Below the pieces are notes generated by a model. That model did not search any database. It worked only from the letters and a program-made list of their open reading frames with translations, and was not told where the DNA came from. From assembly GCA_027492485.1 (NCBI GenBank), contig JAPUER010000074.1:1-39458 (forward strand): a stretch of DNA of 39,458 bases. Reading direction: 5' to 3'. The translations under genes and the position numbers were made by a program. The stretch comes from Betaproteobacteria bacterium (GTDB lineage Bacteria; Pseudomonadota; Gammaproteobacteria; Burkholderiales; Casimicrobiaceae). Below are positions 4,053 to 39,312 of this stretch, one piece after another; the stretch's first letter is position 1, and the number at the start of each line of letters is the position of its first letter.

Positions 4053-4173
4053 ATCAGCTTTTTCGTGAAAGCCCCATTACGTAAGGGTACAGCGGGCATT
4101 TTGACTGAAAGTCGACTGCGGCGATTTTCTTGGTTTAGCCCTTATCGAATGGGCACACTGGCGAAAAGTTGAT
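4053..4173. repeat. Dispersed 120-bp palindromic element, copy A
   Basis: 121 bp. The ends ATCAGCTTTTTCG and CGAAAAGTTGAT are inverted repeats. GTCGAC at 4111-4116 sits exactly at the midpoint. Each half has a small hairpin: CCCCATTACGTAAGGG on the left and GCCCTTATCGAATGGGC on the right. The element fills the gap between the convergent ntrC and IPTL-protein genes and ends 2 bp before the latter's stop codon. It has no T-tract and no ORF. Confidence 0.85.
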
Positions 4174-4175
4174 CG

Positions 4176-4919
4176 TCAAGTCGCGTCGCTTTCTCCGGCA
4201 CGTCGCGGGTCGCCGCGCGTGCCCGAACGCAAGGCCGCAACGCCGGCGAGCAGCAGTGCCAGTAGGCCCAATGCGTAGCCGCTCAACGTCGGGATGGCGT
4301 CTGACACCACATTCAGCGTGAAGACCGTCGAAGCGATGTTGCCATTCTGGTCGGTCACCCGCACCGTGAACGTGAACGCGCCCGACGCCTGCGGCGTGCC
4401 GGCCAACGCGCAACTTGCGCTCAGCGTCAGACCCGGCGGCAACGCGCCGCCTGAAATCACGCAGTTGTAAGGCGGAAAGCCGCCGGATACCGGCAGTGTT
4501 GTGTCATACGGCGTCTTCACCATACCCGGTGGCAACGCGGTCGTGGGCAACGCCAGCGGCGCCGTAATCAAATTCGTCCCGGCGCCGACCACGGCCTCGC
4601 GCCCGTCGGCGTCCGTCGCCCAGATCTGAAACGGTACCGTGGCCGGCATCGGCGTGCCCGACAGCAGTCCGGCCGGCGTCAAACTCAGGCCATTGGGCAA
4701 ACGCCCGACCTCGTTGGTGAACGTATAAGGCGCGACACCGCCGCTCGCGGTGAGGCTCACGCTGTAGCTGCTGCCGGTCGTGCCCGGCGGCAACACCGGT
4801 GGCGCAATGGTGACCGCGCCGGCCGCCGCCCACCACGAAGTGGCCGTTGCTAGCGTCACCAGCCAGCGCCAACGCCGACTGCCGGTGCGGCCGCAGCCTA
4901 ATACTTCAAGCTCGTCCAT
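4176..4919 (-). CDS. Exported Ig-like protein with IPTL-type C-terminal sorting signal
   Basis: A 247-residue protein. An N-terminal hydrophobic stretch after RRWRW (about 18-36) is a probable signal peptide. Two putative-Ig (He_PIG-type) repeats follow, each with PPG...Y...L..SGG..PY and LP.GL.L....L.GTP motifs. The C-terminus has IPTL at about residue 209, then a hydrophobic helix (YALGLLALLLAGVAALR) and a basic tail. That is the layout of the IPTL-CTERM signal, thought to direct envelope anchoring and processing; the usual following Glu/Trp are replaced (IPTLSGY). It lies 8 bases after the S74-domain gene on the same strand, so probably one operon. The binding partner is unknown. Domain assignment is by motif only. 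Confidence 0.8.
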   Translation of the reverse strand: MDELEVLGCGRTGSRRWRWLVTLATATSWWAAAGAVTIAPPVLPPGTTGSSYSVSLTASGGVAPYTFTNEVGRLPNGLSLTPAGLLSGTPMPATVPFQIWATDADGREAVVGAGTNLITAPLALPTTALPPGMVKTPYDTTLPVSGGFPPYNCVISGGALPPGLTLSASCALAGTPQASGAFTFTVRVTDQNGNIASTVFTLNVVSDAIPTLSGYALGLLALLLAGVAALRSGTRGDPRRAGESDAT

Positions 4920-4927
4920 GACGCGCC

Positions 4928-6571
4928 TTACTTGCGGTTGCCGGTGACGATTGCTTCGAGCGTCGCCATGCGTTCGCGCAACGCGGTCAGTTCGCGATCC
5001 TTTTCCGCCAGCGCCGTGCCGAGCGCCTGAATTGCGCCGAGCGCTACGCCAGCAAGATCGCCCGGCGCGATGGCTTTCGGGTTGCTGCCCAGCGAGAAAA
5101 TGCGGTGAAAGTCTTCCGCCGTCGGGCCAAGATGCTGTTCGCTCTTGGGCGCCGTGAGGTAGTTCCAGGTGTAGATCGGCAACGACTGCACCGCCAGCAG
5201 CAGTTGTTCACTACTGACCGGTACGATGTTTTCCTTCAGCGTGACCGACGACGCCTGCGTCAGCGCGCCGCCGATGTTCAGGTTGCCATTGGCGGCGAGC
5301 GTCATTTGCGGTGTGGCAGCACCGGCGAGCGCGACGCTATATCCGCCGTTGCCCGCGATCGTTTCCCAAGTCGTGACCGGTACAGCGGTGGTACTGAAAC
5401 TCAATTTGACGTCGCCGTTGTTGACGAAGCTCGCCAGCGTGCGGGTGGCCGTGGTGCTGCTCGCCTCCTCGACCAGCGACTGCGCACGGCCGTCATCCCG
5501 GCGAACATGCAGCGGCTGCGCGGGGAAGGCGGTGCCGATGCCGACATTGCCGACCGCGCTGACATCGATCGAACTGGTCGGCGCACCGGGCCGGATGCGG
5601 AACGGCAGCTTGCTTCCCGACGTCAAGTCGCGCACGAAAAAGTTAGCCTCGTTGCCGGCAACATCCCAAGTCTGGGCGACGAAGCCGTTACCGTTGGTCT
5701 GTTCCAGCCGCAGGCCTGGCGTATTGCCGTTCGTACCGTGCAACTTCATTACTGGTGTCGACGTGCCCAAACCAACACGTCCGGCCGCGTCGACGAAAAG
5801 ACTGTTGGTCGGCGCGGCTCCGATCACCTTGAACGGAACCGTCCCCGCCGTCACATCCTCGATCGAGAACTGGTTGGCACCGCCACTTGCCGAGTCGTTG
5901 GCTGTCAACTGCCAGTCGGTGCTGGGAAAGCCGATACCGGTGCTGGTGTCGTCGAACTTGATCCGTGTATTGTTTTCTTTCAGGCGAATGGTGTCGAAGC
6001 CGAAGCTCTCGTTGTTGACACAGTCAAGACCGACGCAGAGGCTGCCCTGCACAATCTGGTCGTCGGCAACGACGGCATCCTTGGCGCGTTCGCTGCTCTT
6101 CGCTCGCGCGCCGCTGCCGACAGCGTCGGCACGGTCGACCACCGTGGAGCCCGATACAGTTGTCCGCTTGCTGCCGCTCTCCGTCGGCGCCGGCGACATG
6201 GTCGCTGTATAGAGCATGCCGCCCTGCACAAGAAAGTTGGCCGTTGTTTGCGCCACCTGCGGCGGCGTGCGCGCCTCCGAACGGGCGGCCGGTGCCTGCG
6301 ACACGAACGTCACTTCCACTACATAGCTACCCGCCGCCAGCGTCGACGGATTGGCAGCGAACTGCACCGGCTCGGGGCCAAATTTCTGCTCGACAACGCC
6401 ATCGGGCCCGGAGACCCGCAGCAACGCCACGGCGTGAGGGAAAGCAGCCGTCCAGCGCAAAACGCTGCCCGCCTGCGATTGCGTGACGGTAGCGCCCGGG
6501 GGAGCAGCGAATGACGGCGATGCGACGAGCAGCGCAGCAGCGACGGCCAGCGCGAGCGTTGTACGTTTCAT
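4928..6571 (-). CDS. Exported protein with C-terminal S74 (endosialidase-type) chaperone domain
   Basis: 547 residues from the ATG at 6571, chosen because GGGGGA lies just upstream and the resulting N-terminus is a textbook signal peptide (MKRTTLALAVAAALLVASPSFA). The middle is rich in Gly, Asn, Thr and Val, with repeated VGIGT/LHV-type segments seen in trimeric beta-helical fibres. The last 108 residues match the S74 intramolecular chaperone: SSVTLKENI, YTWNY, HLGPTAEDFHRIF, GVALGAIQAL, then a terminal coiled coil. Ser441 and Lys446 keep the five-residue spacing of the self-cleaving dyad, although the usual Asp after Ser is Ser here. Such domains trimerise tail fibres. The signal peptide and lack of phage genes point to a cellular surface protein. 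Its target is unknown. Confidence 0.82.
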   Translation of the reverse strand: MKRTTLALAVAAALLVASPSFAAPPGATVTQSQAGSVLRWTAAFPHAVALLRVSGPDGVVEQKFGPEPVQFAANPSTLAAGSYVVEVTFVSQAPAARSEARTPPQVAQTTANFLVQGGMLYTATMSPAPTESGSKRTTVSGSTVVDRADAVGSGARAKSSERAKDAVVADDQIVQGSLCVGLDCVNNESFGFDTIRLKENNTRIKFDDTSTGIGFPSTDWQLTANDSASGGANQFSIEDVTAGTVPFKVIGAAPTNSLFVDAAGRVGLGTSTPVMKLHGTNGNTPGLRLEQTNGNGFVAQTWDVAGNEANFFVRDLTSGSKLPFRIRPGAPTSSIDVSAVGNVGIGTAFPAQPLHVRRDDGRAQSLVEEASSTTATRTLASFVNNGDVKLSFSTTAVPVTTWETIAGNGGYSVALAGAATPQMTLAANGNLNIGGALTQASSVTLKENIVPVSSEQLLLAVQSLPIYTWNYLTAPKSEQHLGPTAEDFHRIFSLGSNPKAIAPGDLAGVALGAIQALGTALAEKDRELTALRERMATLEAIVTGNRK

Positions 6572-6694
6572 GGTTCCCCCAAAAGAAAAGACGCGAATCG
6601 ATTGTTGCGTCCAGTTTAATGTCGCTCGCAACCTCGGTGTCGGATTATTCCTGGAATTTGAAATACAGTGGTGCGCAGCGGAGCAACCACCGGC

Positions 6695-7372: not shown

Positions 7373-7414
7373 ATATGCGCCGCCGGCAACGACGGTTCCA
7401 CGATAATTTGCGCG

Positions 7415-8050: not shown

Positions 8051-8060
8051 ACAGTTGCCA

Positions 8061-8726: not shown

Positions 8727-8791
8727 GACGCAAAGGTATGCAAACTATTTTCATCATTCTCCGCGGCACCGATTGCATAGTTTTGCGTCCT
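8725..8791. repeat. Inverted repeat starting in the nth stop codon
   Basis: 19-bp arms at 8725-8743 and 8773-8791 match at 17 of 19 positions. Both outer ends read AGGACGCAAA / TTTGCGTCCT, followed by TATGCAA / TTGCATA, with a 29-base loop. Further GCGCAAA and TTGCGTCCTTGCG motifs run to about 8830. It resembles the dispersed GGACGCAAAG-type intergenic repeats seen in many bacteria (from memory). There is no T-tract, so it is not a clear terminator. Confidence 0.7.
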
Positions 8792-8837
8792 GGCGAGCGC
8801 AAACTCGCGCCATCTTGCGTCCTTGCGCGGAGCACGA

Positions 8838-9275: not shown

Positions 9276-9322
9276 TCGCCGTCGCCAACGCGTTCGTCAC
9301 GGCAACGGGGCGAATCGGTGCT

Positions 9323-9440
9323 ATAGCTTTTTCACGAAAGCGCCTTGTATAGAGGGCTTGGCTGCCTATTCGATTGAAAGTCGACTTTGACTGTTTTCAG
9401 TCTTTATGCCCTGTCTGTACGCCATTTCGTAGCAAAGCTG
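9323..9440. repeat. Dispersed 120-bp palindromic element, copy B
   Basis: 118 bp. Ends ATAGCTTTTTCACGAAAG and TTTCGTAGCAAAGCTG; GTCGAC core at 9380-9385, within 1 bp of the midpoint, in the context GAAAGTCGACTTT. The left hairpin GCGCC...GGGC and the right GCCCTG...GCC are degraded. It lies between the DUF1841 gene and the RCC1 gene pair. The remaining 9441-9528 shows no clear promoter; TTGACG near 9480 lacks a good -10. Confidence 0.8.
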
Positions 9441-9528
9441 CTTCCTAACGGCGCGCAGTTACGCGCTCGCTGACCCGGTTTTGACGCGCTGCGCTTTGTA
9501 GGTATCGGAACTCCTGTCCGTTCGCCAA

Positions 9529-10944
9529 ATGCAGCGCTTCTTTTCACTCCCGGCCAATAGTCGCCGCTTTGGTGGCGATGCCGTTCACGCCCCGCGCAAC
9601 ATGCTCGCGACACTGGCAGCGCTGGCGTTGAGCGCGTGCGCAGGCACGCTGGCCGCGCAGCCCTACACACAAATCGTGGCCGGCGAATACCATAGCTGCG
9701 CCCTGCTCGACAGCGGCGGCGTGCACTGCTGGGGCGACAACTTCCGCGGCCAGCTCGGCAATGGCATGTCCGGCAACGGGCAGGAATCGCCGCAACCGGT
9801 GCGCGTGCTCGGCCTCAACACTGCCGTGCACATCGCCGCCGGCACCTCGCACAACTGCGCCGCGCTGCGCGATGGCCGCGTGCAATGCTGGGGCTACAAC
9901 TTTCGCGGTCAACTCGGTAACGGCGGCACCACGCAAAGCAGCACGCCGGTGCTGGTCGGCACGCTGACCGACGCCATCGCCGTGGCCACCGGCGGCGACC
10001 ACAGTTGCGCCCTGCGGCAGGGCGGCGCCATCAAGTGCTGGGGCTACAACGGCGACGGCGAGCTCGGTCACGGCGGCAGCGAGCTCTATCTCGCCAGCCC
10101 GGTCGACGTTGCCGGCATCGCGACGGCCACCGCGATCAGCGCGCGCCATCTGCACACCTGCGCGCTGCTCGCCAGCGGTGCCGTCAAGTGCTGGGGCCGC
10201 AACAGCGATGGCCAGCTCGGCGACGGCAGCTACACCTCGCCACGGCGCACGCCGGTGGACGTACAGGGGCTGACCAACGTGAGCCGCATCGCGGCCGGCT
10301 GGCTGCACACTTGCGCGACCCTGCTCTCCGGTGGCGTCGTGTGCTGGGGCAGCAACACCTACGGCATGCTGGGCACGGGCAACACCACCGGCAGCAATAC
10401 CTGGGTCAGCGCGTATCCGTCGCTGACCGGGGCGACGGCCATCGCCGCGGGCGAGCAGCACAGTTGCGCCGTGCGTACCGGTGCCGGGCGCATCGAATGC
10501 TGGGGCTACAACGGCAACGGCCGGCTCGGTTACGGTGTCATCGCCGCCACCGGCATCACGGTGGGCACGGCGAAAGTGCTGGGCAACGACAGCTTCGTCA
10601 GCGTCGCGGCCGGGCGCACGCACAGTTGCGCGCTCACCACCGGCGACAGCGCCAAATGCTGGGGCGCCAACGCGGCCGGTCAGATTGGCACGACGCACTT
10701 CGCCGCCGGCGGCGATGACCACAGCGTGCCGCAATTCGTTGCGCCGCGTTGCGAGCTGGACATCGACGGCGACGGCCTCTACAGCGCCGCCACCGACGGC
10801 GTGCTGGCGCTGCGGGCGCTGGCGGGCATGAGTGGCAGCGCGGTGACCACCGGCGCCGTGGGCGGCGGCGCCACGCGCACGAGCTGGCCGCAAATTCGCA
10901 ATTTCCTCATTCGCGCCTGTGGCGTCGCGGGGCTTGCACCATGA
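9529..10944 (+). CDS. Exported RCC1-like seven-repeat protein, first of tandem pair
   Basis: 471 residues. An arginine-containing leader precedes MLATLAALALSACAGTLAAQ, a signal peptide that may also hold a lipobox (LSAC). ATG 9601 is an alternative start and neither has a clear ribosome site. Seven repeats follow, each with H(S/T/N)CA...CWGxN..GQLG, i.e. RCC1-type blades, enough for one closed propeller. Each blade has a Cys in HSCA and another in CWG, suggesting disulfides in an exported protein. The C-terminus holds DIDGDG, a Ca-binding-like loop, then TDGVLALRALAG...SW..IR..L...CG. Its stop overlaps the start of its paralogue (ATGA), so the two are translationally coupled. Ligand unknown. 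Confidence 0.85.
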   Translation: MQRFFSLPANSRRFGGDAVHAPRNMLATLAALALSACAGTLAAQPYTQIVAGEYHSCALLDSGGVHCWGDNFRGQLGNGMSGNGQESPQPVRVLGLNTAVHIAAGTSHNCAALRDGRVQCWGYNFRGQLGNGGTTQSSTPVLVGTLTDAIAVATGGDHSCALRQGGAIKCWGYNGDGELGHGGSELYLASPVDVAGIATATAISARHLHTCALLASGAVKCWGRNSDGQLGDGSYTSPRRTPVDVQGLTNVSRIAAGWLHTCATLLSGGVVCWGSNTYGMLGTGNTTGSNTWVSAYPSLTGATAIAAGEQHSCAVRTGAGRIECWGYNGNGRLGYGVIAATGITVGTAKVLGNDSFVSVAAGRTHSCALTTGDSAKCWGANAAGQIGTTHFAAGGDDHSVPQFVAPRCELDIDGDGLYSAATDGVLALRALAGMSGSAVTTGAVGGGATRTSWPQIRNFLIRACGVAGLAP

Positions 10945-12353
10945 CTACGAAATTCTCCCGATCCGCGCGGCTGCTTGCCGGCGCGGCGCTGACGACTTGC
11001 CTGGCGGCCAGTGCGCCGGCGCAGTCGCAGACGATCTACACCCAGCTATCGGCCGGCGACAGTCATGGCTGCGCCGTCACCAGCAACGGCCGGGTTCACT
11101 GCTGGGGCGCCAACACGACGTTTGGCGTGCTCGGCAACGGCGGCACCGGCGCCAGCAACGTGCCGGTGCCGGTGCGTGGCATCGGCAACGCCGTGGAGGT
11201 GCGGGCTGGCGTGTCGCATACCTGTGCGCGCCTGACCGATGGCAGCGCCCGCTGCTGGGGCAAGGGCGTCGACGGCGCGTTGGCGCAGGGCAGTTTCGAC
11301 AACAGCACGCTGCCGGTCACGGTGTGGGGTTTCGGCCCGGCGGGGCCGGCCCGGCAGATCGGCGTCGGCGCCCAGCACACCTGCATCCTGCAGCAGGGCG
11401 GCCAGGTGTTTTGCGCCGGCCGCAACGATTGGGGGCAAGCGGCGCTGGCGCCCAACCCGTCCAGTCAGCCGTGGTCCGTGCCCCTCCTCAACGTCGATGA
11501 AATTGCCGTCGGCCACTATCACTCGTGCGCGCGTGTTGGCGGCACGGTGTCCTGCTGGGGCCGGAACAGCAGCGGGCAACTGGGCAACGGCAGCGCGGTC
11601 GCGTCAAGCAGCACGCCGGTTGCCGTGACCGGCATCGGCACCGCAATCGCGCTGTCCGCCGGTGCGTCGCACACCTGCGCGCTACTGGCACCGGGCGGCG
11701 TCCTCAGTCTCAGCAGCGTGGTCTGCTGGGGCGACAACGCGTCCGGGCAACTGGGTAGCGGCGGCATCGGCGGCAGCAGCAACACGCCGCTGACGGTGGC
11801 CAGCCTCGGCGCCAGCGGCAACACGCCGGATACCATCGCCGCCGGCGCGCAACACAGCTGCGCACGTCTGCTCGATGCCACCGTGCAATGCTGGGGTCTG
11901 GCACTGTACGGCGCCATCGGCGACGGCGGCGATGGCAGCGTGGCCTATCGCCCCAGCCCAACGACCGTGGTCGGGCTTGCGCCAGCGGCAGCCGGCGTCA
12001 ATACGACCACGACGGGCATCGCGGCCGGCAACAACAGCAGTTGCGTCATCATGAACGACGGCGGCATCCGCTGCTGGGGCTACAACGAATTCGGTCAGGC
12101 CGGCCACGGGCATGGCGGCACCTATCAAACCACCCCGCAATACGTCGCCGCGCCCGGTTGCGCGCTGGACATCGACGGCGACGGTGTCGCGCGGCACAGC
12201 ACCGACGGCCTGCTGCTGGCGCGTGCGCTCGGCCTGCGCAGCGGCAGCGCAGTCACGCAGGCGGCAACCCATCCCGACGGCACCCGCAGCAGCTGGTCCG
12301 CCGTTCGCGGGCAACTTGCCGGCCCGTGCGGCATACCGGGGCTGCCGCTGTAG
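10941..12353 (+). CDS. Exported RCC1-like seven-repeat protein, second of tandem pair
   Basis: 470 residues, paralogous to the preceding gene and overlapping it by four bases (ATGA). A classic signal peptide (MTTKFSRSARLLAGAALTTCLAASAPAQ) starts at ATG 10941. Seven blades are visible, with cores HCWGAN, RCWGKG, FCAGRN, SCWGRN, VCWGDN, QCWGLA and RCWGYN; the third has lost its Trp. The same C-terminal module is present: ALDIDGDG then TDGLLLARALGL...GSAV...SW..VRG.L...CG. The proteins differ clearly in sequence, so the duplication is old. It is convergent with the kinase gene, with 22 bases between stops and no obvious terminator. Confidence 0.85.
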   Translation: MTTKFSRSARLLAGAALTTCLAASAPAQSQTIYTQLSAGDSHGCAVTSNGRVHCWGANTTFGVLGNGGTGASNVPVPVRGIGNAVEVRAGVSHTCARLTDGSARCWGKGVDGALAQGSFDNSTLPVTVWGFGPAGPARQIGVGAQHTCILQQGGQVFCAGRNDWGQAALAPNPSSQPWSVPLLNVDEIAVGHYHSCARVGGTVSCWGRNSSGQLGNGSAVASSSTPVAVTGIGTAIALSAGASHTCALLAPGGVLSLSSVVCWGDNASGQLGSGGIGGSSNTPLTVASLGASGNTPDTIAAGAQHSCARLLDATVQCWGLALYGAIGDGGDGSVAYRPSPTTVVGLAPAAAGVNTTTTGIAAGNNSSCVIMNDGGIRCWGYNEFGQAGHGHGGTYQTTPQYVAAPGCALDIDGDGVARHSTDGLLLARALGLRSGSAVTQAATHPDGTRSSWSAVRGQLAGPCGIPGLPL

Positions 12354-12375: not shown

Positions 12376-14958
12376 CTACCGGCGCGGCGCCGCAACGGCC
12401 GCAGCGACCGTGTTGCAAGCGCGCAGCTCGGCATCGGCGCCCGCGAAACCATCGGCGTCGATCAACGCCGGGTCGGCGGCAGCCAATTGCCGGGCCGCGG
12501 CGATCTGCCGTGTCGCGCCGGCGCATGCCTCGCTGCGGGCGCGGCTGCCCGCCGCCGCCTGCGCCGCTCGTTGCGTCGCCAGCCAGGCCTGCGCGAGCAG
12601 GAGCTTCAGTTGACTCTGCCGCGCGACATAGTGCCCCTGCAGCTTGGCCGCGAGCGCCGCTTGTGCGTGCTGACCGCGTTCGACCATTGCGCCGGTTTGT
12701 GCCGCGTCGCCGGCACGCCGGTAAAAGTCTGCAAGCGCAGCGATAGTCTTCAGCACGTCAAGCGCCGCATCCTCGTTGGCCGCGTCCGAGCGCTTCAGTG
12801 CGTCGAATTCGTCGAGAATCGCCCGCGCCTCGGCGATCGCCGGGCCCGGCTCTCCCGCCGCGGCATAGGCATTGGCCAGTTCCATGCGGGCGTTGAGCGT
12901 GCTGCGCCGATAGCCGACGTCGCCCGGATGCAACTGCTCGTTGCTGCGCATCAGCTCGGCACCGCGCTGGTGCCAGGCGACTGCCTTGCGGGCGCCATCG
13001 ACACCGCCGCTGCGGCGCGACGCTTCCGCCAGCGCCGTATAGCAGCGCCAGAGAATGGCACGAATCGTCTGCGCGTCGTCCGACGCCGGCGCGTAGGCGG
13101 CGAGCTTTGCCGCCAGCGCGCTCGCACTCTGCTCCATGCCGGCGCGGTCGAAACTACCGTTGCCCAGATAAAGCGCGGAAACATTGCGTGCGACGATCGC
13201 CTTTTGCACGGCGTAGAACAGGTCGGCGTCGTCCGCTGCGCGCGTCGTGGCCTCGCTGCCGAGCGCCGCCGCACGGGCAAACAGCGCTGAGGACTTCGGG
13301 AAATTGCGATACAAGCCCTGCTGTTCGGCAAACTCGGTGAGCGTCTTCAGCTGCTCGACGGCGGTTGCGGTCTGCGGCCGGATGGCGAGCGCGGCAGCGA
13401 GCGCTGTCACGGCCTTTTCGTAAGCCTGCTCGCTGGCGGCAAGCTCGCCGGTGTTGGCGCCCTGGATGCCACCGAGGATGCGCCCCAGACGGCGGTAGCC
13501 TGCCCCCACCTCATGCAGCAACGCGGCATCGCCGGCAGCATCGGCGCGCAGGCCATCGAGATAGGCGAGCGACTGCCCGATCAGTTCCTTCTGCAATTGC
13601 GTGGTGCCGGGGACGGCGGCGAGCTTGCGGTGCAGATCGAACAGCAGTTGATTGGTCATCTTGCGCACCGACGCGAAGTGCTGCTCTGCGCGGGCGCGCT
13701 GCGCGCTTGCCTCGCGCTCGGCGGCGCGCGCAAGCTGCGCCTGATACAGCGCAATGGTGGCCGCCACCAGCACGCCGAGCAGCGCCAGCGTCGCCAGCGC
13801 CGCGCCGCCGGCATGCCGCTGCACGAAGCGCCGCGCACGATAGCCGACGCCACCACCGCGCGCCTGCACCGGTTCATGCGCGAGATAACGGCGCACGTCA
13901 TCCGCCAGTTGCGCCACGCTGGCGTAGCGCTGCGAAGGCTCCGCCGCCATCGCTTTGCCGGCAATGCAGCGCAGATCGTCGTCGGCTGCATTGGCGCCCG
14001 CCGGCCCCGGCTCGTCACCCACCGCCAGCCGCAGCAACAGGGCACCGAGCGCATGCACGTCGCTGGCGGTGGTGACTGCGTCGCCGCGCAGTTGCTCCGG
14101 ACTCGCCCACCCCGGCGTCAGTGCAACGGCAGCGCCTTCGCCCGGTGCCGAACCGCCGGCGCGATCGCTGATTTGCGCGATGCCGAAATCGATCAGTTTG
14201 ACGCGCACGTCGTGCGTCACCATCACATTGGCCGGCTTGATGTCGCGGTGCACGATCAGCCGCTGGTGCGCGTACTGCACGGCGGCGCAAACATCGAGAA
14301 AGCGCGCCAGCCACTCGCGCGGCGCCGCCTTGGTGCGCGCGCACCAGCGATCGATCGCCTCGCCCTCGACCAGCTCCATGACCAGATACAGCGTGCCGTC
14401 ATCGGCCGCGCCACCGTCGATAAGCCGCGCGATGCCGGGATGCGACAGCGAGGCGAGCAGTTGCCGCTCGTCGCGAAACCATTGCTTACTGGCGCCGCCG
14501 CGTGCGCGCAACAGTTTGACCGCGACCGTCTGTTCATAGGCCGCGTCGTCCCGCCGTGCCCGATAGACAATGCCCATGCCGCCGCTGGCCAGCCACTGCT
14601 CGATGCGCCAGGCGCCGACCCGACGGCCGATCCAGTGCGCCTGCGCGTCGGCCGCCGCAGCCGCCGCGTCGTGCGCCAGCGTCGTCGCATCCAGCCAGCG
14701 CGTCGCCGGCAGCACCCAGTCGGCCTGCGCATCGGCGGCGAGCAGCGAGCGCACTTCGGCAAGCAAGGCCCGGTCGTCGGCGCAGGCGGTGTCGACGAAG
14801 GCGGCGCGTGCCGCAGTATCCGGGATAGCCAGCGCGGTTTCGATGATTTCGCCGATGCGTGACCACGTCGCCTCCGCCAGCAGCGGGCGCCCGCGGGCAG
14901 CGTCCGTCGTGCCGGTCGTACCGGTTGCCGTCCCGTCAGCTCTCGATCTCGTCGCCAT
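12376..14958 (-). CDS. Membrane Ser/Thr protein kinase with TPR-like extracytoplasmic region
   Basis: 860 residues. A helical N-terminal region (about 30-90, TWSRIGEIIETAL...VRSLLAAD) is typical of one class of bacterial kinases. The Hanks-type kinase domain (about 112-360) has glycine loop LASGGMGIVYRA, Lys148 in VAVKLL, HRDIKPANVMV (Asp239), DFG (257-259) and ASPEQL. One membrane helix (about 387-407) follows, then about 450 residues of alpha-helical TPR-like sequence, presumably periplasmic. All catalytic residues are kept. It lies 69 bases downstream of an ECF sigma gene on the same strand, so the sigma factor is a likely substrate or partner, as in the PknT/EcfP pair of Vibrio. GGGGTGG may be its ribosome site. 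Confidence 0.92.
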   Translation of the reverse strand: MATRSRADGTATGTTGTTDAARGRPLLAEATWSRIGEIIETALAIPDTAARAAFVDTACADDRALLAEVRSLLAADAQADWVLPATRWLDATTLAHDAAAAAADAQAHWIGRRVGAWRIEQWLASGGMGIVYRARRDDAAYEQTVAVKLLRARGGASKQWFRDERQLLASLSHPGIARLIDGGAADDGTLYLVMELVEGEAIDRWCARTKAAPREWLARFLDVCAAVQYAHQRLIVHRDIKPANVMVTHDVRVKLIDFGIAQISDRAGGSAPGEGAAVALTPGWASPEQLRGDAVTTASDVHALGALLLRLAVGDEPGPAGANAADDDLRCIAGKAMAAEPSQRYASVAQLADDVRRYLAHEPVQARGGGVGYRARRFVQRHAGGAALATLALLGVLVAATIALYQAQLARAAEREASAQRARAEQHFASVRKMTNQLLFDLHRKLAAVPGTTQLQKELIGQSLAYLDGLRADAAGDAALLHEVGAGYRRLGRILGGIQGANTGELAASEQAYEKAVTALAAALAIRPQTATAVEQLKTLTEFAEQQGLYRNFPKSSALFARAAALGSEATTRAADDADLFYAVQKAIVARNVSALYLGNGSFDRAGMEQSASALAAKLAAYAPASDDAQTIRAILWRCYTALAEASRRSGGVDGARKAVAWHQRGAELMRSNEQLHPGDVGYRRSTLNARMELANAYAAAGEPGPAIAEARAILDEFDALKRSDAANEDAALDVLKTIAALADFYRRAGDAAQTGAMVERGQHAQAALAAKLQGHYVARQSQLKLLLAQAWLATQRAAQAAAGSRARSEACAGATRQIAAARQLAAADPALIDADGFAGADAELRACNTVAAAVAAPRR

Positions 14959-15027
14959 CTGCCCGCCACCCCGTTGCCGCTGCGTCGCCCGCCCACAATG
15001 CTGAAAGCGCGCTGCGGCGGAATCGGC

Positions 15028-15609
15028 TCACGTCGCGCCGTCCTGCCCGGCCCGGAGGGCGGCCAGCTCGCGCAGCAGGAACAGGCGGGCCACGGTCCAT
15101 TCGCGTTTGACGGTGGACGGCGAGGTGCCCAGTTGCCGCGCGATGTCGTCGATGCCGACATCGGCGAAGAATTTGAGCTCGACGATCTCGGCCTGACGTG
15201 GGCTCTGGCGGGCCAGCGCGTCGATCGCGCGGTCCAGCGATTCCAGGTCCAGTTCACGCCCGACGCGGCGCAGTTGCGTGGTTTCGCCGGACGCCGGATA
15301 GAGCCCGTCGGCGCAGGCCTGCTCGTAGTCGTGCACCGTATTGTCGAAAGCGACCGCTGCCACCCCGCCGCCGCGCTTCGCGGCGTTGCGTTGCCGCGCA
15401 TGATCGACCAGCAGGTTGCGCATCACGCGCGCGGCCAGTCTGAGAAAGTCGGTGCGCCCGGCGGGCATGGCCCCTGCCGCCAGCCGCAGCCAGGCTTCAT
15501 GCACGACCGCCGTGCGCGACAGCGTGTGACCCGCCGCCTCATGCGCAAACACCGCCTGCGCAATCTGTCGCAGCTCGGCGTAAAGCTCGTCGGTCAGCCG
15601 GATCGTCAT
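15028..15609 (-). CDS. ECF-type RNA polymerase sigma factor, kinase-linked
   Basis: 193 residues from ATG 15609; an in-frame TTG at 15648 would lie inside repeat element C and is unlikely. Region 2 includes HTLSRTAVVHEAWLRL and the polymerase-binding FLRLAARVMRNLLVDHARQRNAAKRGG. Region 4 carries the HTH (DDIARQLGTSPSTVKREWTVARLFLLREL). The TxxVHEAWLRL segment is typical of the ECF subfamily often found beside Ser/Thr kinases. No anti-sigma gene is adjacent; the kinase follows instead, so control by phosphorylation is the simplest idea. The start is 21 bases from repeat element C, so its promoter must lie in that element or further upstream in yggU. Confidence 0.9.
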   Translation of the reverse strand: MTIRLTDELYAELRQIAQAVFAHEAAGHTLSRTAVVHEAWLRLAAGAMPAGRTDFLRLAARVMRNLLVDHARQRNAAKRGGGVAAVAFDNTVHDYEQACADGLYPASGETTQLRRVGRELDLESLDRAIDALARQSPRQAEIVELKFFADVGIDDIARQLGTSPSTVKREWTVARLFLLRELAALRAGQDGAT

Positions 15610-15630
15610 GCCGGCAGCATAGCGCAGCGG

Positions 15631-15760
15631 ATTGGCTTTTTTGCGCAAAGCCCTGCTGCATTGGGCTCAATGGCCAATTTTGCGGAAAGTCGACTTTCGC
15701 TGTAAATTTGCCTTTTGCCCATAGTGAATGCGGCTGTCAGCCCGTATTTTGCAAAAGCTG
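15631..15760. repeat. Dispersed 120-bp palindromic element, copy C
   Basis: About 130 bp. Ends TTGGCTTTTTTGCGCAAAG and TTTTGCAAAAGCTG; core GGAAAGTCGACTTTC with GTCGAC at 15689-15694. Left hairpin GCCCTGCTGCATTGGGC, right GCCCATAGTGAATGCGGC. Its right end carries the stop codon (15737-15739) and last codons of the yggU homologue (QLLQNTG); its left end is 21 bp from the sigma-factor start. Confidence 0.82.
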
Positions 15761-16036
15761 TAACAGCACGGCAGCGGGCGCAACACCCTGTACGGCAACC
15801 CGCTTGTGCCGGTTCAGTTCACCGGCGACCAGCGCGACGCGGTTTTTCGCGACGCCACAGCGGCGCGCGATGAAGGCGACGACGGCAGCGTTCGCCTTGC
15901 CTTCGACCGGCGGCGCCAGCACCCGCAGTTTCAGCGCGCCGTCGTGCTCGCCGGCCACCTCCGTCTTCTTCGCGCCCGGCTGCACGTAGAGCGTGATTTC
16001 GACGCCGTCGGCGGTGGCTTTCAGCCACGCCGGCAT
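15737..16036 (-). CDS. yggU: DUF167 (YggU-like) protein
   Basis: 99 residues from ATG 16036. A GTG at 16063 overlapping the proC stop would add nine residues and is possible through coupling. Family motifs are VEITLYVQPGAKKTEVAGEHDGALKLRVLAPPVEGKAN and VALVAGELNRHKRVAV, matching E. coli YggU (96 residues, function unknown). It is third in a yggS-proC-yggU operon, recalling enteric yggS-yggT-yggU. Its last seven codons (QLLQNTG and stop) are provided by the terminal repeat of palindromic element C. Confidence 0.9.
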   Translation of the reverse strand: MPAWLKATADGVEITLYVQPGAKKTEVAGEHDGALKLRVLAPPVEGKANAAVVAFIARRCGVAKNRVALVAGELNRHKRVAVQGVAPAAVLLQLLQNTG

Positions 16037-19973: not shown

Positions 19974-20095
19974 ATCAGCTTTTCGTTGCGACACCCATTT
20001 CATTGGGCGTAGCGCGTGTTTTCGCCAATTGTCGACTTTAGACGAAAACAACGGCTGAGCCCTTAGTCAATGGGCATTTCACGCGAAAGCCATAG
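19974..20095. repeat. Dispersed 120-bp palindromic element, copy D
   Basis: 122 bp. Ends ATCAGCTTTTCGTTGCG and CACGCGAAAGCCATAG; GTCGAC at 20031-20036, within 1 bp of the midpoint, followed by TTTA. Left hairpin ACCCATTTCATTGGGC, right GCCCTTAGTCAATGGGC, both well conserved. It fills the pilU to DMT-transporter gap, leaving 29 bp before the next start. Confidence 0.85.
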
Positions 20096-26237: not shown

Positions 26238-26242
26238 GACCT

Positions 26243-26265
26243 GTAGGAGCGGCTTGCCGCGACCC
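26243..26265 (+). repeat. REP element, left of transposase gene
   Basis: A 23-bp repetitive extragenic palindrome containing GTAGGAGCGGCTTGCCGCGA, with hairpin GCGGC-TT-GCCGC. Its exact reverse complement lies at 26771-26793 on the other side of the RAYT gene. The GTAGGAGCGGCTT class is known from Pseudomonas and Xanthomonas relatives. Confidence 0.9.
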
Positions 26266-26274
26266 ACGGCAGCC

Positions 26275-26745
26275 TTAAAGCCAAGTCGAATCCCACCAGG
26301 AATAGTCGCCCAACCGGGCGACAAGCCCCGCCCGCAAAGGATTGGCCACAACGTAGCGAGCAACGGCAAGCAGATCTTCGTCGCGCCGTATAGCACGATC
26401 AAAATAGCCTGCCTGCCATACAGACGTGGCCCTCGCAGCGCCAAGCGCATCGTTGCAAGCCCCGGCGCTTGCGTTCTTCAGTCTCGCCACCAGATGGCTC
26501 AGATCATCGAGTTCGCCAAGTTCGATCAGCCAATGCGCGTGATCGTGCATCAGCACCCACGCAAGGAGTCGAGCGTCGCTATCGGCTTCAATCTTGTGAA
26601 ACGCTGCACAAGCCGTGAATGCAGCAACGGGATTCGCAAAGACGTGCAAACCCCTTTTCGTTCGCGCGGTGACGTGATAGACCTGCCCCGGGATTGACGT
26701 TCGACCTTTGCGCAGGGCTCGAGAACCGGGGCGCGTCGTATTCAT
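26275..26745 (-). CDS. REP-associated tyrosine transposase (RAYT)
   Basis: 156 residues from ATG 26745. A single-domain Y1/HUH transposase: RTSIPGQVYHVTARTKRGLHVF at the start, MHDHAHWLIEL with the HUH histidines (HAH), SVWQAGYFDRAIRRDEDL near the catalytic tyrosine, and ARYVVANPLRAGLV at the end. The end DYSWWDSTWL is also typical. RAYTs are domesticated single-copy transposases that act on REP sequences. Perfect inverted REPs at 26243-26265 and 26771-26793 flank it, making a complete REP-RAYT unit. The reading frame is intact, so it is probably functional. Confidence 0.92.
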   Translation of the reverse strand: MNTTRPGSRALRKGRTSIPGQVYHVTARTKRGLHVFANPVAAFTACAAFHKIEADSDARLLAWVLMHDHAHWLIELGELDDLSHLVARLKNASAGACNDALGAARATSVWQAGYFDRAIRRDEDLLAVARYVVANPLRAGLVARLGDYSWWDSTWL

Positions 26746-26770
26746 CGAGCTGGATTGGTCACCTACCGTT

Positions 26771-26793
26771 GGTCGCGGCAAGCCGCTCCTACA
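26771..26793 (-). repeat. REP element, right of transposase gene
   Basis: Exact 23-bp reverse complement of the REP at 26243-26265, lying 25 bp upstream of the RAYT start and 16 bp beyond the stop of the TPR-protein gene. Confidence 0.9.
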
Positions 26794-26809
26794 AACGGCC
26801 GAACAGCGC

Positions 26810-27592
26810 TTACTCCATCTCCGCCTTAGCGGCTTCCACGTCAAGGCACTCCATCGCATCCTTCGGCTCGCACGCCGCGGCTTCGCCGTACAGCCGCTCG
26901 ACGTCCTTCATCTTCTTGTCGCCGAACAGTTTGTAGAGACCATCGGCCATTTCGGTGCGGGCGACGGCCGACTCGGGATTGAGCTTGACGGCCTTTTCGT
27001 AGTTCTCGACGGCGGCTTCCTTGCTGGCGCCGTAGGTCATCTTGCCGATCATGCTGCCGACCTTTTCGATGACTTCGGCGTTGAAGGTGCCCAGCGCGAT
27101 ATGTGCGTCGGCATGCTTCGGGTCGAGCTTGATCGCGGTTTCCAGTGCGGTGCGCACCTTGCCGCCGATACCCTGCGTCAGCGCCTTGGCGACGCCGATC
27201 AATTGGCCGTAGCGGCCCAGCGCGTAAGCGGCCAGGTAGTAGGCGTTGGCGTTCTTCTTCTGCGCGGCCTGCAGCTCCTCGCAACGGGCTGCGATTTCCT
27301 CGTAAGCCTTCTGCTTTTTGGCGTCGCTGGTTTCGAGGTAGTTGTTGTAGATGCAGGCGGCCTTGTTGGCGGCGTTGTAGCCATCCAAACCCGCGGCGAG
27401 GCCCGCCTCATACGCGCCCTGGAAATCACCGGCGTGATAGAGCCGCCAGGCTTCTTCGACCGCCTTGTCGGTCGGGAACGGTTCGGCATCACCCTTGTGC
27501 AGGCGGGCCCAGTTTTTCTTGAGCGCGGCGCCATCGTAGACGAATGCGCTGTTGTCGTGCGGGAAATCCATCCAACCACCCTTTTTTGCCAT
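26810..27592 (-). CDS. TPR-like repeat protein of unknown function
   Basis: 260 residues, no signal peptide or membrane segment. It starts MAKKGGWMDFPHDNSAFVYDG with AGGAAA six bases upstream. TPR-like helices are visible in EEAWRLYHAGDFQGAYEAGLAAGLDGYNAANKAACIY and EAAVENYEKAVKLNPESAVARTEMADGLYKLFG (shown as blocks EEAWRLYHAGDFQGAYEAG and AVENYEKAVKLNPESAV). ALETAIKLDPKHADAHIALG is a third. It is a cytoplasmic, probably scaffold-type protein. I do not recognise a named family. The 155 bases upstream hold REP-like repeats rather than a clear promoter. Confidence 0.82.
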   Translation of the reverse strand: MAKKGGWMDFPHDNSAFVYDGAALKKNWARLHKGDAEPFPTDKAVEEAWRLYHAGDFQGAYEAGLAAGLDGYNAANKAACIYNNYLETSDAKKQKAYEEIAARCEELQAAQKKNANAYYLAAYALGRYGQLIGVAKALTQGIGGKVRTALETAIKLDPKHADAHIALGTFNAEVIEKVGSMIGKMTYGASKEAAVENYEKAVKLNPESAVARTEMADGLYKLFGDKKMKDVERLYGEAAACEPKDAMECLDVEAAKAEME

Positions 27593-28570: not shown

Positions 28571-28692
28571 ATCATCTTTTTTACGGAAACGACCTACGTA
28601 CGCGGCGTAGCGGCACAAAACGTAAAAAGTCGAGTTCTCGTCAAAATGCGACCGTAGCCCTCATTGAATAAGGCTTTGACGAAAAAGCTGAT
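28571..28692. repeat. Dispersed 120-bp palindromic element, copy E
   Basis: 122 bp. Ends ATCATCTTTTTTACGG and GACGAAAAAGCTGAT. The core is AAAAGTCGAGTTC with GTCGAG at 28629-28634, exactly at the midpoint, so the second half of GTCGAC is altered. The right hairpin GCCCTCATTGAATAAGGC is kept, the left is diverged. It ends 3 bp before the stop codon of the patatin-like gene. Confidence 0.78.
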
Positions 28693-32854: not shown

Positions 32855-32976
32855 AATGACTCTCGCGTGAAAGCGGCGCCCGACAAGGGCGACAGCGCCG
32901 TTTATGCCTGAAGTCGACTTTCGGCACTTTCGGGCGCCAGGCCGCATCTCCTATCCACACGACGGGAAAAGTTGAT
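32855..32976. repeat. Dispersed 120-bp palindromic element, copy F
   Basis: 122 bp. Ends AATGACTCTCGCGTGAAAG and ACGGGAAAAGTTGATG; core GAAGTCGACTTTC with GTCGAC at 32913-32918, exactly at the midpoint. Left hairpin GCGCCCGACAAGGGCG; the right hairpin has decayed. It occupies the first half of the 369-base gap between the reductase and SWIB genes. Confidence 0.78.
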
Positions 32977-33671: not shown

Positions 33672-33677
33672 CGCCCG

Positions 33678-35057
33678 TCAATCCAGTTCCACTTCGTCGC
33701 GATACTCCGGCACCGAGCAGTGCCAGCCAAAACGCTCGCCGATCCGCTTGCGCAGCGCGTCGGCGGCCGCCGGCTCGCCGTGGGTGATGAAGACGTGACG
33801 CGGCGGCCGTTTGAACGCGGCCAGCCACTGCAACAGTTCTTCGTAGTCGGCATGCGCCGACATCGTCTCGATGTTCGTCACTTCGGCGCGCACCGGCACG
33901 TACTCGCCGAAAATCTTCACCACGTCGGCACCGCCGACCAGCGTCGCCCCGCGCGTGCCGCCGGACTGGAAACCAGTGAACAGGATGGTGTTGCGCTCGT
34001 CGGGCGCCATCTGCACCAGGTGATGCAACACGCGCCCGCCGGTCGCCATGCCGCTCGCCGAGATGACGATCATCGGCGTCTTCTGCTGGCAAAGCCGCTT
34101 CGACTCCTCCGGCGTGCGGATGAACTTCGCCAGCCGGCACATGCCGGAATAGTCGCGCTCGGAGAGCTTGTGTTCGTCGGCAAATTCGCGATAGATGCCG
34201 GTGGCGTCGATCGCCATCGGGCTATTGATGAAGATCGGCACCGGCGGCAGTTCGCCGCGCAACTGCAGCTGGTAGAGGTGGAACAAAATCACTTGCGCGC
34301 GCCCGACCGCGAAGGCCGGAATCAGCACGCTGCCGCCGCGCGCCACCGCGCGCGTCACCACGTCGCACAGCGTGGCCGCCGTGTCGCCGGCCGGATGCAG
34401 GCGGTCGCCGTAGGTCGATTCCACGACCAGGTAGTCGGCGCTTTCGATCGGCGCCGGTGGCCGCATCAGCGGATCGTTCATGCGACCGACGTCGCCGGAA
34501 AACGCAATCGTCACGCCGGCGTGGGCGATCTCGATGCTCGCCGAACCGATGATGTGTCCGTTCGGCCGCCAGCAGGCGCTGATCCCGTTCGCGCCTTTCA
34601 CCACCTCGATGCGATGGCGATAGTCGACCGGCGCGAGATGCCGGCATATCGCGCGGGCATCCTCGGCGGTGTACAGCGGCAGCGCCGGCTGGTGGCGCGA
34701 GAAGCGATGCTTGTTGGCAAAGTTTGCTTCTTCCTCCTGCAGATGCGCCGCGTCGACCAGCAGAATCTCCGCCAATGCCTGCGTCCCCCGCGTACAGTAG
34801 ACGCGGCGGCGGAAGCCGCGCTTGCCGAGCACCGGCAAATAGCCGCTGTGATCGATATGGGCGTGGGTCAACAGCACCGCATCCAGCGAGGACGGCGAAA
34901 ACGGCAGTTCGGCCCAGTTCTTCAGCCGCAACTGCTTCCAGCCTTGGAACAGACCGCAATCGACCAGCACGCGATGGTCGTCGGTGCTGAGCAGGTATTT
35001 GGAACCGGTGACGGTGCCGGTGGCGCCAAGAAACTGCAGGCGAAAACGGCTGCTCAT
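33678..35057 (-). CDS. Beta-CASP metallo-beta-lactamase-fold hydrolase, RNA-processing type
   Basis: 459 residues. The metallo-beta-lactamase core starts FLGATGTVTGSKYLL and holds the zinc motif THAHIDHSG (His65, His67, Asp69, His70), then NGHIIGSASIEI and FSGDVGR. The beta-CASP insert is VVESTYGDRLH...VLIPAFAVGRAQVILFHLYQL, and the C-terminal MSAHADYEELLQWL and VFITHGEPAAADALRKRI complete the family of CPSF73/YSH1-like nucleases. Such bacterial proteins are predicted RNA exo- or endonucleases. It overlaps the lipase gene by four bases (ATGA), so translation is coupled although the functions seem unrelated. Confidence 0.93.
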   Translation of the reverse strand: MSSRFRLQFLGATGTVTGSKYLLSTDDHRVLVDCGLFQGWKQLRLKNWAELPFSPSSLDAVLLTHAHIDHSGYLPVLGKRGFRRRVYCTRGTQALAEILLVDAAHLQEEEANFANKHRFSRHQPALPLYTAEDARAICRHLAPVDYRHRIEVVKGANGISACWRPNGHIIGSASIEIAHAGVTIAFSGDVGRMNDPLMRPPAPIESADYLVVESTYGDRLHPAGDTAATLCDVVTRAVARGGSVLIPAFAVGRAQVILFHLYQLQLRGELPPVPIFINSPMAIDATGIYREFADEHKLSERDYSGMCRLAKFIRTPEESKRLCQQKTPMIVISASGMATGGRVLHHLVQMAPDERNTILFTGFQSGGTRGATLVGGADVVKIFGEYVPVRAEVTNIETMSAHADYEELLQWLAAFKRPPRHVFITHGEPAAADALRKRIGERFGWHCSVPEYRDEVELD

Positions 35058-36034: not shown

Positions 36035-36068
36035 TGCGGTCGGCGGTGGTTCGGCGATGCCGACAGTA

Positions 36069-37661: not shown

Positions 37662-37698
37662 GAATGCGTTTGCCCTTTATGGCGTTCCGGGGTTGCGC

Positions 37699-38214: not shown

Positions 38215-38364
38215 TCCGGCATCCTCCTGCTCGTGTTGCGGCCGATTGTAGGGACGGGCGCTAGAGCTTGTGGCCTACGCAGCGACCGCCGGCATCGCCG
38301 CTGTCGCGTGGGGAGCTTGATCCAGGTCCAGCACCCGGCGCGCGCTTTGTCCTACGCTTGCCGT

Positions 38365-39075
38365 ATGTCCAGGTCAGGAACGTCATACGAATCCACGCTG
38401 CGTGCGCACTTCGCTGCCGCACGGGCCGAGCGCGCAGCCGCACGCAGCACGGCGGCGAGCGCCGACGATCGCCTTGCGGTGCGCCGCTGGCAGCAGCAGC
38501 GCCTCGCCATCACCCACGGCGACTTGCTGGCGTCCGACGAATTCGGCCCGGCGGCGCGCTTCTTCCTGTCCGAGCTCTATTCGACCGAGGATCTGACGCA
38601 GCGCGACGCCGACATCGAGCGGGTCATTCGCATCCTGGTGAAGTTTCTCCCCGACAAGGCGCTGGCCACGCTTGCCGCGGCGCTGGAAATGGATGCGCTG
38701 TCGGAGCTGCTCGATGCCCGCCTCGCGAAGGCGCTGCGCGAGCAATGCCGCAACGACGCGGCGCTGACCATCACGGCGGAAAGCTACGCGCTTGCCTATC
38801 GTGCGATGGGCGATCACGATCTGCGCCTGCGCCAGATCGCACTGACCGAGGAGATCGGCATCGCGTTGAACAAGCTGGCGCGCATGCCGCTGCTGGCGGG
38901 TCTGTTGCGCATGATGCGCGGCCCGGCCCATGCCGGCGGCGTCGGCGGGCTGCATGAATTCCTGGAGCGCGGCTACGCGGCGTTCGCGCACATGAAAGAC
39001 GGCCGCGCCTTCATTCAAACCATCGTCGAGCGCGAGCGGGCGGAACACCGGCGGCTGACGGACGGGTCAGCCTGA
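38365..39075 (+). CDS. Conserved hypothetical protein (FFLSELY motif)
   Basis: 236 residues from ATG 38365. Mostly alpha-helical and soluble, no signal peptide. The block FGPAARFFLSELYSTEDLTQRDADIERV is recognisable in an uncharacterised proteobacterial family, but I know no function. The acidic-basic DLTQRDADIERV and the later GLHEFLERGYAAFAHMKDG and FIQTIVERERAEHRR are well-formed helices. No operon partner; the upstream gene is divergent and 150 bases away. Bases 39076-39192 after it show nothing, then repeat element G. Confidence 0.75.
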   Translation: MSRSGTSYESTLRAHFAAARAERAAARSTAASADDRLAVRRWQQQRLAITHGDLLASDEFGPAARFFLSELYSTEDLTQRDADIERVIRILVKFLPDKALATLAAALEMDALSELLDARLAKALREQCRNDAALTITAESYALAYRAMGDHDLRLRQIALTEEIGIALNKLARMPLLAGLLRMMRGPAHAGGVGGLHEFLERGYAAFAHMKDGRAFIQTIVERERAEHRRLTDGSA

Positions 39076-39192
39076 CACGGTCGTTACCGCGATTGCCGAG
39101 ACGACAGGCGCAAGGCGCGACGGGCGTTTCGGGGCGGTGCTTGGGTTGTGGTTGCGGTCTGCTGCCGGCGCTGCGCGCACGGCCATAGAGCA

Positions 39193-39312
39193 ATCAGCTT
39201 TTGCGTCGAAGCCCTATTGCAATAGGGCTGCGCGCGTGTTTTCGCGTTTATCGAGTTTGCGCCGAATCGAGCGCTTTGCCCATATTGAACGCCGCTTCCG
39301 CGAAAAAGCTGT
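39193..39312. repeat. Dispersed 120-bp palindromic element, copy G
   Basis: 120 bp. Ends ATCAGCTTTTGCGTCGAAG and CCGCGAAAAAGCTGTA; core TATCGAGTTT centred at 39252.5, exactly the midpoint. The left hairpin AGCCCTATTGCAATAGGGCT (39210-39229) is a perfect 20-bp palindrome; the right is GCCCATATTGAACGCC. It lies between the hypothetical gene and the 3' end of tRNA-Arg. Confidence 0.82.

What the first reader, a model, noticed from the sequence alone, without database searches (positions are those of the whole stretch)
4053..39312. A family of seven dispersed, dyad-symmetric ~120-bp intergenic elements
Seven intergenic segments (4053-4173, 9323-9440, 15631-15760, 19974-20095, 28571-28692, 32855-32976, 39193-39312) share one plan: ends like AGCTTTTTCG and CGAAAAAGCT, a GCCC...GGGC hairpin in each half, and a GTCGAC or TCGAG core at the midpoint. 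In four copies the core is exactly central, in two within 1 bp and in one within 4 bp, although I set the ends without using the core. Sequence between the conserved blocks varies while pairing is often kept, which suggests selection for structure. The size recalls enterobacterial ERIC; the plan also recalls AGCTGCTAGCGCTT-type repeats of Comamonadaceae (from memory). No gene here explains them. They could be MITE-like relics, RNA structures or protein-binding sites.
Basis: partly seen in the sequence, partly recalled or inferred. Interest (0 to 1): 0.87.

Follow-up and report, generated by a model that had tools for sequence, protein, structure and literature searches.

The report
Evenly spaced 122-bp symmetric DNA elements
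A little-known bacterial genus carries hundreds of evenly spaced, mirror-symmetric 122-base DNA elements between its genes, apparently kept by selection and written in different "dialects" in different lineages, which points to an unknown protein that binds them all along the chromosome.

Summary
The seven segments are real members of one family. A profile built without window copies finds exactly these seven at E<1. The same genome has about one copy per 12 kb on the one long contig examined, some 360 by extrapolation. The family was found in 16 of 17 genomes of one genus, probably betaproteobacterial, and in 0 of 47 other genomes of its family.
The "conserved pairing" interpretation largely fails. 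Arms of one copy pair only 0-2 percentage points better than arms of different copies, and an all-pairs scan finds no helix.
A plain MITE relic does not fit either. In the sister species, 24 of 26 resolvable gaps hold a copy. Core columns are 92% identical and variable columns 36%, against about 65% at four-fold codon sites. Length stays near 122.
Copies are spaced more evenly than chance (pooled CV 0.60 against 0.94). The same plan carries lineage-specific dialects (126 of 128 held-out copies assigned correctly).
Best explanation: composite binding sites for an unidentified, co-evolving, chromosome-organising protein. The protein and its function are inferred. The window's RAYT has its own, different REPs.

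The parts
4053..4173 (.). 122-bp dyad element, copy 1 (convergent gap)
9323..9441 (.). dyad element, copy 2; element also in the orthologous gap of G005
15631..15761 (.). dyad element, copy 3, with an insertion of about 10 bp in one arm; element also in the orthologous gap of G005
19974..20095 (.). dyad element, copy 4, between PilU and EamA genes; element in the same gap in G005, G013, G015, G002 and G007
28571..28692 (.). dyad element, copy 5; element also in the orthologous gaps of G005, G013 and (30 bits) G004
32855..32976 (.). dyad element, copy 6 (partly degenerate); copies of 25-26 bits in the orthologous gaps of G005 and G004, none found in G013
39193..39312 (.). dyad element, copy 7, beside a tRNA-Arg gene; no element found in the corresponding G005 gap
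26242..26859 (-). NOT part of the family: RAYT gene (26275-26859) with its own inverted REPs at 26242-26272 and 26763-26793; used as a negative test for a RAYT origin

Best explanation
Each element is a composite, two-fold symmetric DNA binding site of nearly fixed length (about 122 bp). It has outer AGCTTTT blocks, an inner GCCC..GGGC block centred about 33 bp from the dyad, A/T-only patches, and a central TCGA palindrome. A dedicated protein (dimer or higher oligomer) made by this genus binds the blocks along one face or wrap of the DNA, partly by DNA shape. Hundreds of such sites, one per 6-13 kb in intergenic DNA in the stretches examined, would act as chromosome-wide anchor points (loops, supercoil domains or segregation). 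Shown here: anatomy, near-fixed length, near-independence of columns, purifying selection on core columns, vertical descent, even spacing, and lineage-specific dialects shared by the copies of a genome. Inferred: that a protein binds, which protein, and the chromosome-organising role.
For: Length: 83 of 87 full hits deviate from the model by -2 to 0. Selection: 24 of 26 resolvable gaps in G005 hold a copy (20 of 22 if gaps over 2 kb in G005 are dropped; my count). Core identity is 0.92 (376 cells, 17 pairs) against 0.36 at variable columns (null 0.31), and in-register flanks are 0.40 (null 0.28), while four-fold sites are 0.67 (0.65 by my arithmetic without two probably misframed ORFs). Vertical descent: at four A/T-only columns all 17 ortholog pairs keep A/T and 54 of 68 cells keep the same base. 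Indirect readout: columns 48-49 are A 0.45-0.53, T 0.47-0.55, G+C at most 0.01. Near-independence: 2 of 6786 column pairs exceed z=3 (9 expected), and the best helix (2.6) is below 12 of 12 nulls. Even spacing: pooled CV 0.60 against 0.935, reached by 0 of 4000 shuffles; 6 of 7 genomes individually P<0.04. Dialects: 126 of 128 held-out copies of five genomes go to their own profile, while the sister pair G000/G005 is not separable (25/36, 14/36). At the copy-4 and copy-5 loci each copy fits its own genome's profile best in 8 of 9 rows, the exception being a G005 copy that fits its sister G000; 6 of 6 in the less certain copy-2/3 region (profiles include the copy itself). Intergenic: the centre of 0 of 78 copies lies in a called gene, with 78-88% of the stretches called coding.
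Against: No binding protein was identified and nothing was tested in vivo. G016, a small genome of the same genus, shows no element with either model and G009 few, so the system is dispensable or not detectable there. Copies are gained or lost over longer times: the PilU-EamA gap lacks one in 9 of the 16 genomes where it could be read. Some copies are halves or degenerate. Copies were found by profile, which inflates apparent conservation and dialect fit. Part of the dialect signal may follow base composition. Arms of one copy do pair very slightly better than chance in some genomes (z 2.5 in G007, 1.3 and 1.7 in G000 and G005). Even spacing could have other causes, such as selection against nearby repeats; G013 alone is not significant. 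The nucleoid role is only a reading of the spacing.
Confidence: 0.5

Rival explanations
1. Old MITE family: ends and blocks were needed for a transposase that is now lost or unseen, and the copies are immobile relics.
For: Inverted ends, about 120 bp, intergenic, hundreds of copies by extrapolation, half-copies. AT..AT at the ends could be a duplication.
Against: Core columns stay 92% identical between orthologous copies while four-fold sites do not. Length is nearly fixed. Closest paralogs among 56 copies of this genome are 78% identical, so no recent amplification was seen. The consensus differs between lineages at shared loci. The one small gap lacking the element in G005 is not a clean excision.
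Confidence: 0.16
2. Gyrase (topoisomerase) anchor sites, comparable to BIME-2 of E. coli: gyrase wraps a symmetric stretch of about 130 bp and relieves supercoiling between genes.
For: Size, two-fold symmetry, alternating A/T and G/C patches, intergenic place and spacing resemble the symmetric 130-bp gyrase motif (PMC6379681, passages read).
Against: That motif has a 10.75-bp GC period in its flanks. In the G000/G005 profile power at 10.75 is not significant (0.091, P 0.13) and the flank peak is at 7.45 bp; whole-element peaks in the other genomes lie at 9.3-9.6 or 7.5 bp. Gyrase is universal, whereas the elements were found in one genus only and have sharp sequence cores and dialects.
Confidence: 0.1
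3. Self-recognition or DNA-uptake signal with species dialects, like the DUS of Neisseriaceae.
For: Dialects shared genome-wide and many copies; the window has T2SSE-type genes read here as pilT/pilU. DUS dialects: PMC3630211 (passages).
Against: DUS occur in thousands of copies and commonly also inside genes; here 0 of 78 centres lie in a gene, and a 122-bp site is far larger than a DUS (its short size is recalled). Competence was not tested.
Confidence: 0.08
4. RNA structure (terminator, mRNA 3' end, small RNA).
For: Several single copies fold better than shuffles (z to -4.7). A slight excess of within-copy pairing (z -0.1 to 2.5 in seven genomes).
Against: No consensus pairs with double changes, no helix in the all-pairs scan, the excess is 0-2 percentage points, 16 of 78 copies lie in divergent gaps, no Rfam match at elements searched. 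The single-copy folding is explained by the symmetric consensus.
Confidence: 0.07
5. REPIN mobilised by the RAYT found in the window.
For: A RAYT lies in the window (NF047646). Y1_Tnp is absent from exactly the two genomes with no or few elements (G016, G009).
Against: The RAYT is flanked by a different REP, GTAGGAGCGGC... At 9 RAYT stretches of 8 genomes the six profiles used give no element, only one 6-bit hit of 22 bp. No compensatory structure and no near-identical copies. Both genomes lacking Y1_Tnp are small, which can explain the co-loss.
Confidence: 0.03

Closest known systems
DNA uptake sequence dialects of Neisseriaceae
   Same: Many dispersed sites; consensus shared within a genome and different between related species; a trans-acting reader (ComP) is known there (abstract in the listing).
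   Different: DUS are short (recalled), number in thousands and are commonly intragenic; here one 122-bp two-fold symmetric site, intergenic in 78 of 78 copies checked, about 1 per 6-13 kb.
REP/BIME and REPIN elements
   Same: Intergenic, symmetric, fixed length, hundreds of copies; a Y1 transposase is present in 15 of 17 genomes.
   Different: No GTAG tag in this element's consensus, no compensatory structure, no near-identical copies; the RAYT here has another REP.
ERIC / bacterial MITEs
   Same: Size about 120-127 bp, inverted ends, intergenic, copy number in the hundreds (ERIC up to 711, passage in PMC10969869).
   Different: No sequence match of the one copy tried in 5,426 E. coli genomes; selected core with nearly saturated spacers; dialects.
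DNA gyrase motif / strong gyrase sites of E. coli
   Same: Symmetric, about 130 bp, A/T-G/C alternation, indirect readout.
   Different: No 10.75-bp period here; strong base-specific blocks; found in one genus only.

Membership tests
REPIN (REP doublet) / RAYT system | Two inverted REPs that pair, compensatory changes common in the spacer (PMC3116915 passages) | tested here: not met
   (at most a 2-point excess of pairing)
REPIN (REP doublet) / RAYT system | Same REP flanks the genome's RAYT gene | tested here: not met
   RAYT flanked by GTAGGAGCGGCTTGCCGC; no 122-bp element at 9 RAYT stretches
MITE | Terminal inverted repeats, about 100-400 bp | tested here: met
MITE | Recent or near-identical copies, precise empty sites | tested here: not met
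   closest of 56 copies 78% identical; one site looked at, no clean empty site
MITE | Target-site duplication | not tested
   Not formally tested; AT..AT at the ends is ambiguous because it is self-complementary
MITE | Parent transposon with the same ends | not tested
   No dedicated search was made
ERIC | Sequence similarity to ERIC copies in E. coli | tested here: not met
   no match for one copy, blastn, E<=0.01; at the family's divergence a distant relation could be missed
Gyrase motif / BIME-2 | Symmetric about 130-bp pattern with 10.75-bp GC period | tested here: not met
   symmetric, but the period was not found
Gyrase motif / BIME-2 | Gyrase cleavage in vivo | not testable with these tools
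   Needs Topo-Seq
DNA uptake sequence | Species dialects shared by the copies of a genome | tested here: met
DNA uptake sequence | Thousands of copies, commonly also in genes | tested here: not met
Rfam RNA families | Match at the element | tested here: not met
   window, gathering scores; 8 loci, E<=0.1, hits only outside the elements

The most novel reading that the evidence does not exclude
A new kind of chromosome architecture signal: a genus-wide, evenly spaced set of hundreds of 122-bp symmetric multi-block sites read by an undiscovered fast-evolving DNA-binding protein, with the sites of a genome shifting dialect in place as the protein's specificity changes.
Probability: 0.35. Interest if true: 0.9.

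Novelty: new variant of a known kind. Interest (0 to 1): 0.72.

Why it matters
Many bacterial dispersed repeats are read as mobile relics or RNA hairpins. Here hundreds of copies look like selected, vertically inherited DNA sites whose consensus changes genome-wide while the plan stays. That makes a concrete, testable case of co-evolution between a trans-acting factor and hundreds of sites, and a handle on how bacterial chromosomes might be divided at the 10-kb scale.

Tried and rejected
RNA or cruciform structure: folding of single copies looks good for several, but alignments show no covariation worth the name. My first seven-genome pairing test used only copies of exactly 122 bp and had the G015 copies out of register; it was redone by model columns, which I rely on. 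There the whole-element z values are 1.3, 1.7, 0.6, 0.0, 2.5, 0.8 and -0.1. The best local hairpin has P 0.04 in G000, 0.07-0.98 in the others, before correction for seven genomes, and not at the GCCC/GGGC spacing. Because of this slight excess I moved the RNA rival from 0.06 to 0.07 and the MITE rival from 0.17 to 0.16.

Accelerated or replaced interiors: ortholog interiors first looked more diverged than their flanks. In-register counting gives 0.36 against 0.40, and A/T-only columns show vertical descent, so replacement was dropped.

Preference for gene 3' ends: 15 of 25 tandem copies in G000 (P 0.42) and 19 of 26 in G005 (P 0.03) lie nearer the upstream stop; too weak to claim. Gap types follow the available space.

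Terminators and promoters: of the consensus matches in the window a few touch elements (4107, 28701, 15706); no excess at elements was tested or claimed.

RAYT origin: rejected. Gyrase periodicity: not found. One exact pattern in viral contigs, one copy in plasmids, one in E. coli, one in phages: no match. Named relatives: 0 of 26 genomes with model R1 (no positive genome in that call, but R1 finds G000). Most of the 80 named PilU relatives are labelled as Betaproteobacteria or their families; a guess at Casimicrobium or Usitatibacter is from memory only.

Literature: the searches listed no paper that I recognised as describing this family; only the top of each ranking was seen and most subscription papers are not held, so this does not show that it is unpublished.
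Full report
WHAT WAS CHECKED. The seven segments were read and aligned. A profile from 24 copies elsewhere in the genome finds these seven and no other place in the window at E<1, and nothing in the reversed window. One copy alone used as a blastn query matches 44 places in the genome at E<=10, itself included. In 439 kb of the genome (window, a 359-kb contig, and two 20-kb stretches chosen because they held copies) a profile that includes the window copies finds 44 places, against 1 under 10 bits in the reversed sequence. On the 359-kb contig there are 31 copies after merging half-copies, mean spacing 11.8 kb, which extrapolates to about 360 per 4.12-Mb genome. The genome-wide search scored only 150 of 1132 candidates (both strands listed), all with E at or below 1.9e-15, so no full count was made.

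WHERE IT OCCURS. With a sequence-only model of 31 copies (R1), 16 of 40 genomes match at E<=0.01, all in one genus (16 of 17, G016 being the miss); 0 of 7 others in the family and 0 of 16 in the order match. With a second model from three distant species of the genus (R2), again 16 of 17 in the genus and 0 of 47 others in the family at E<=0.001. 26 named genomes, mostly labelled betaproteobacterial, gave 0 with R1. PilU relatives suggest Betaproteobacteria; the genus name is not known to me. No match in viral contigs (one exact pattern), plasmids, E. coli or phages (one copy each), nor in Rfam at the elements searched.

ANATOMY. 91 full copies from two species align to 122 columns. 83 of 87 full hits have length -2 to 0 relative to the model. 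From each end: A-T-C-A-G-C-TTTT, a soft TGAAA, a C-rich stretch with CATT, GGGC at 33-36, an A/T-only patch at 47-50, and a central AAAGTCGACTTT. Columns 48 and 49 are about half A and half T, with G and C together at most 1%, which suggests shape readout rather than base pairing. The A/T-G/C profile is correlated between six genomes (0.46-0.87).

LITTLE PAIRING. If the arms paired, the arms of one copy should match each other better than arms of different copies. They hardly do: 0.316 against 0.294, sd 0.0115, at 17 variable mirrored pairs; whole-element z of 1.3, 1.7, 0.6, 0.0, 2.5, 0.8 and -0.1 in seven genomes, an excess of 0-2 percentage points (which replaces the faulty per-genome test). 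All-pairs scan: 2 of 6786 pairs above z=3 (9 expected) and a best helix of 2.6, below all 12 permuted controls. RNAalifold finds 3 pairs without double changes in one set and none in the other. Good folding of single copies follows from the symmetric consensus. The slight excess could come from weak structure or from mutations templated by the other arm; it was not followed further.

SELECTION AND DESCENT. G005 is the closest genome held (window genes 85% identical at nucleotide level). Of 37 copy rows in the window and the 359-kb contig, 27 had resolved synteny, that is 26 gaps because two half-copies share one; 24 of 26 gaps hold a copy in G005, 2 do not. Four of the occupied gaps are over 2 kb in G005; without them it is 20 of 22. 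In 17 ortholog pairs (one copy with two candidate partners was dropped) the 25 core columns are 92% identical, variable columns 36% (null 31%), the first ten flanking bases 40% (null 28%), and four-fold sites 67% (about 65% without two ORFs that look misframed). A/T-only columns keep the same base in 54 of 68 cells, so the copies descend from a common ancestor in place. The closest pair among 56 copies of the window's genome is 78% identical: no recent burst among them. The core is chosen from the same copies and copies are found by profile, so the 92% is an upper estimate; the synteny count is less affected.

PLACE AND SPACING. With a simple codon-usage gene caller, 0 of 78 copy centres lie in a gene (copies scoring 20 bits or more with a called gene on both sides); 51 lie in tandem, 16 in divergent and 11 in convergent gaps, close to the share of available space. 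Spacing is more even than random placement in intergenic gaps (CV 0.63 against 0.91, P 0.009; and 0.70 against 0.92, P 0.053) and than uniform placement in seven genomes pooled (0.60 against 0.935, 0 of 4000 shuffles; 6 of 7 individually P<0.04, G013 P 0.42). The genomes share some loci, so they are not fully independent.

DIALECTS. Iterated profiles give the same plan with another inner block in other species, written from G013 as CATCCATAACGGGCTTG, from G007 as CCCNATTTAATTGGGCGA, from G011 as GCCNTATNAAATANGG. Held out, 126 of 128 copies of G013, G015, G007, G002 and G011 go to their own genome's profile; the sisters G000 and G005 are not separable (25 of 36, 14 of 36) (the copies had been found with their own genome's profile, and G015 copies were cut 1-2 bases off). 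In the PilU-EamA gap an element is present in G000, G005, G013, G015, G002 and G007; each fits its own profile best, except that the G005 copy fits G000 best (profiles not held out there; G002 and G007 scores are modest, 28 and 31 bits). The same gap lacks it in 9 of the 16 readable genomes, G010 is unclear, and G001 could not be read. So copies are kept for long times but also gained or lost. Base-composition differences between genomes may help the classification.

MECHANISM. Near-independent columns, shape-type columns, fixed spacing of blocks and a genome-wide shared, lineage-specific consensus are what sites for a diffusible DNA-binding protein would show. Even spacing and the intergenic position without preference for a gap type point to a chromosome-wide rather than gene-specific job. 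This is the committed reading (0.5); the protein is not identified. The rivals and their tests are listed in their sections. A RAYT in the window is a neighbour with its own REPs, although RAYT absence coincides with element scarcity in two small genomes.

LITERATURE SEEN. PMC3116915, PMC3630211, PMC6379681, PMC10969869: passages only; all other papers: search listings with abstract starts.

Noticed in passing
window 26242-26859: A RAYT gene (REP-associated tyrosine transposase, NF047646) with its own inverted GTAGGAGCGGCTTGCCGCGACC repeats; the only Y1_Tnp match at E<=1e-5 in this genome; no match in the two smallest genomes of the genus.
   Followed up: yes
window 9529-12353: Two neighbouring genes for RCC1-repeat proteins (WD40_RLD/RCC1), with internal repeats.
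   Followed up: no
window 4176-6631 (-): A putative-Ig (He_PIG) protein with an IPTL-CTERM sorting motif, beside a Peptidase_S74 (endosialidase chaperone) protein at 4928-6631.
   Followed up: no
window 12376-15648 (-): A large protein-kinase gene next to an ECF sigma factor gene (Sigma70_ECF).
   Followed up: no
window 34737-34837 (-): ARAGORN tRNA-Ser call (anticodon act) inside a beta-CASP gene; not found by Rfam at gathering score, probably false.
   Followed up: partly
G000 C79:196063-196129 and 196317-196379: Two half-elements in one gap where G005 has one full element; half-length hits occur elsewhere too (C79:327122, L024).
   Followed up: partly
G011 (several contigs): Seven Y1_Tnp matches in one genome of the genus, against one in most.
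   Followed up: no
window 15631-15761: Copy 3 carries an insertion of about 10 bp in one arm; one of the few length exceptions.
   Followed up: no
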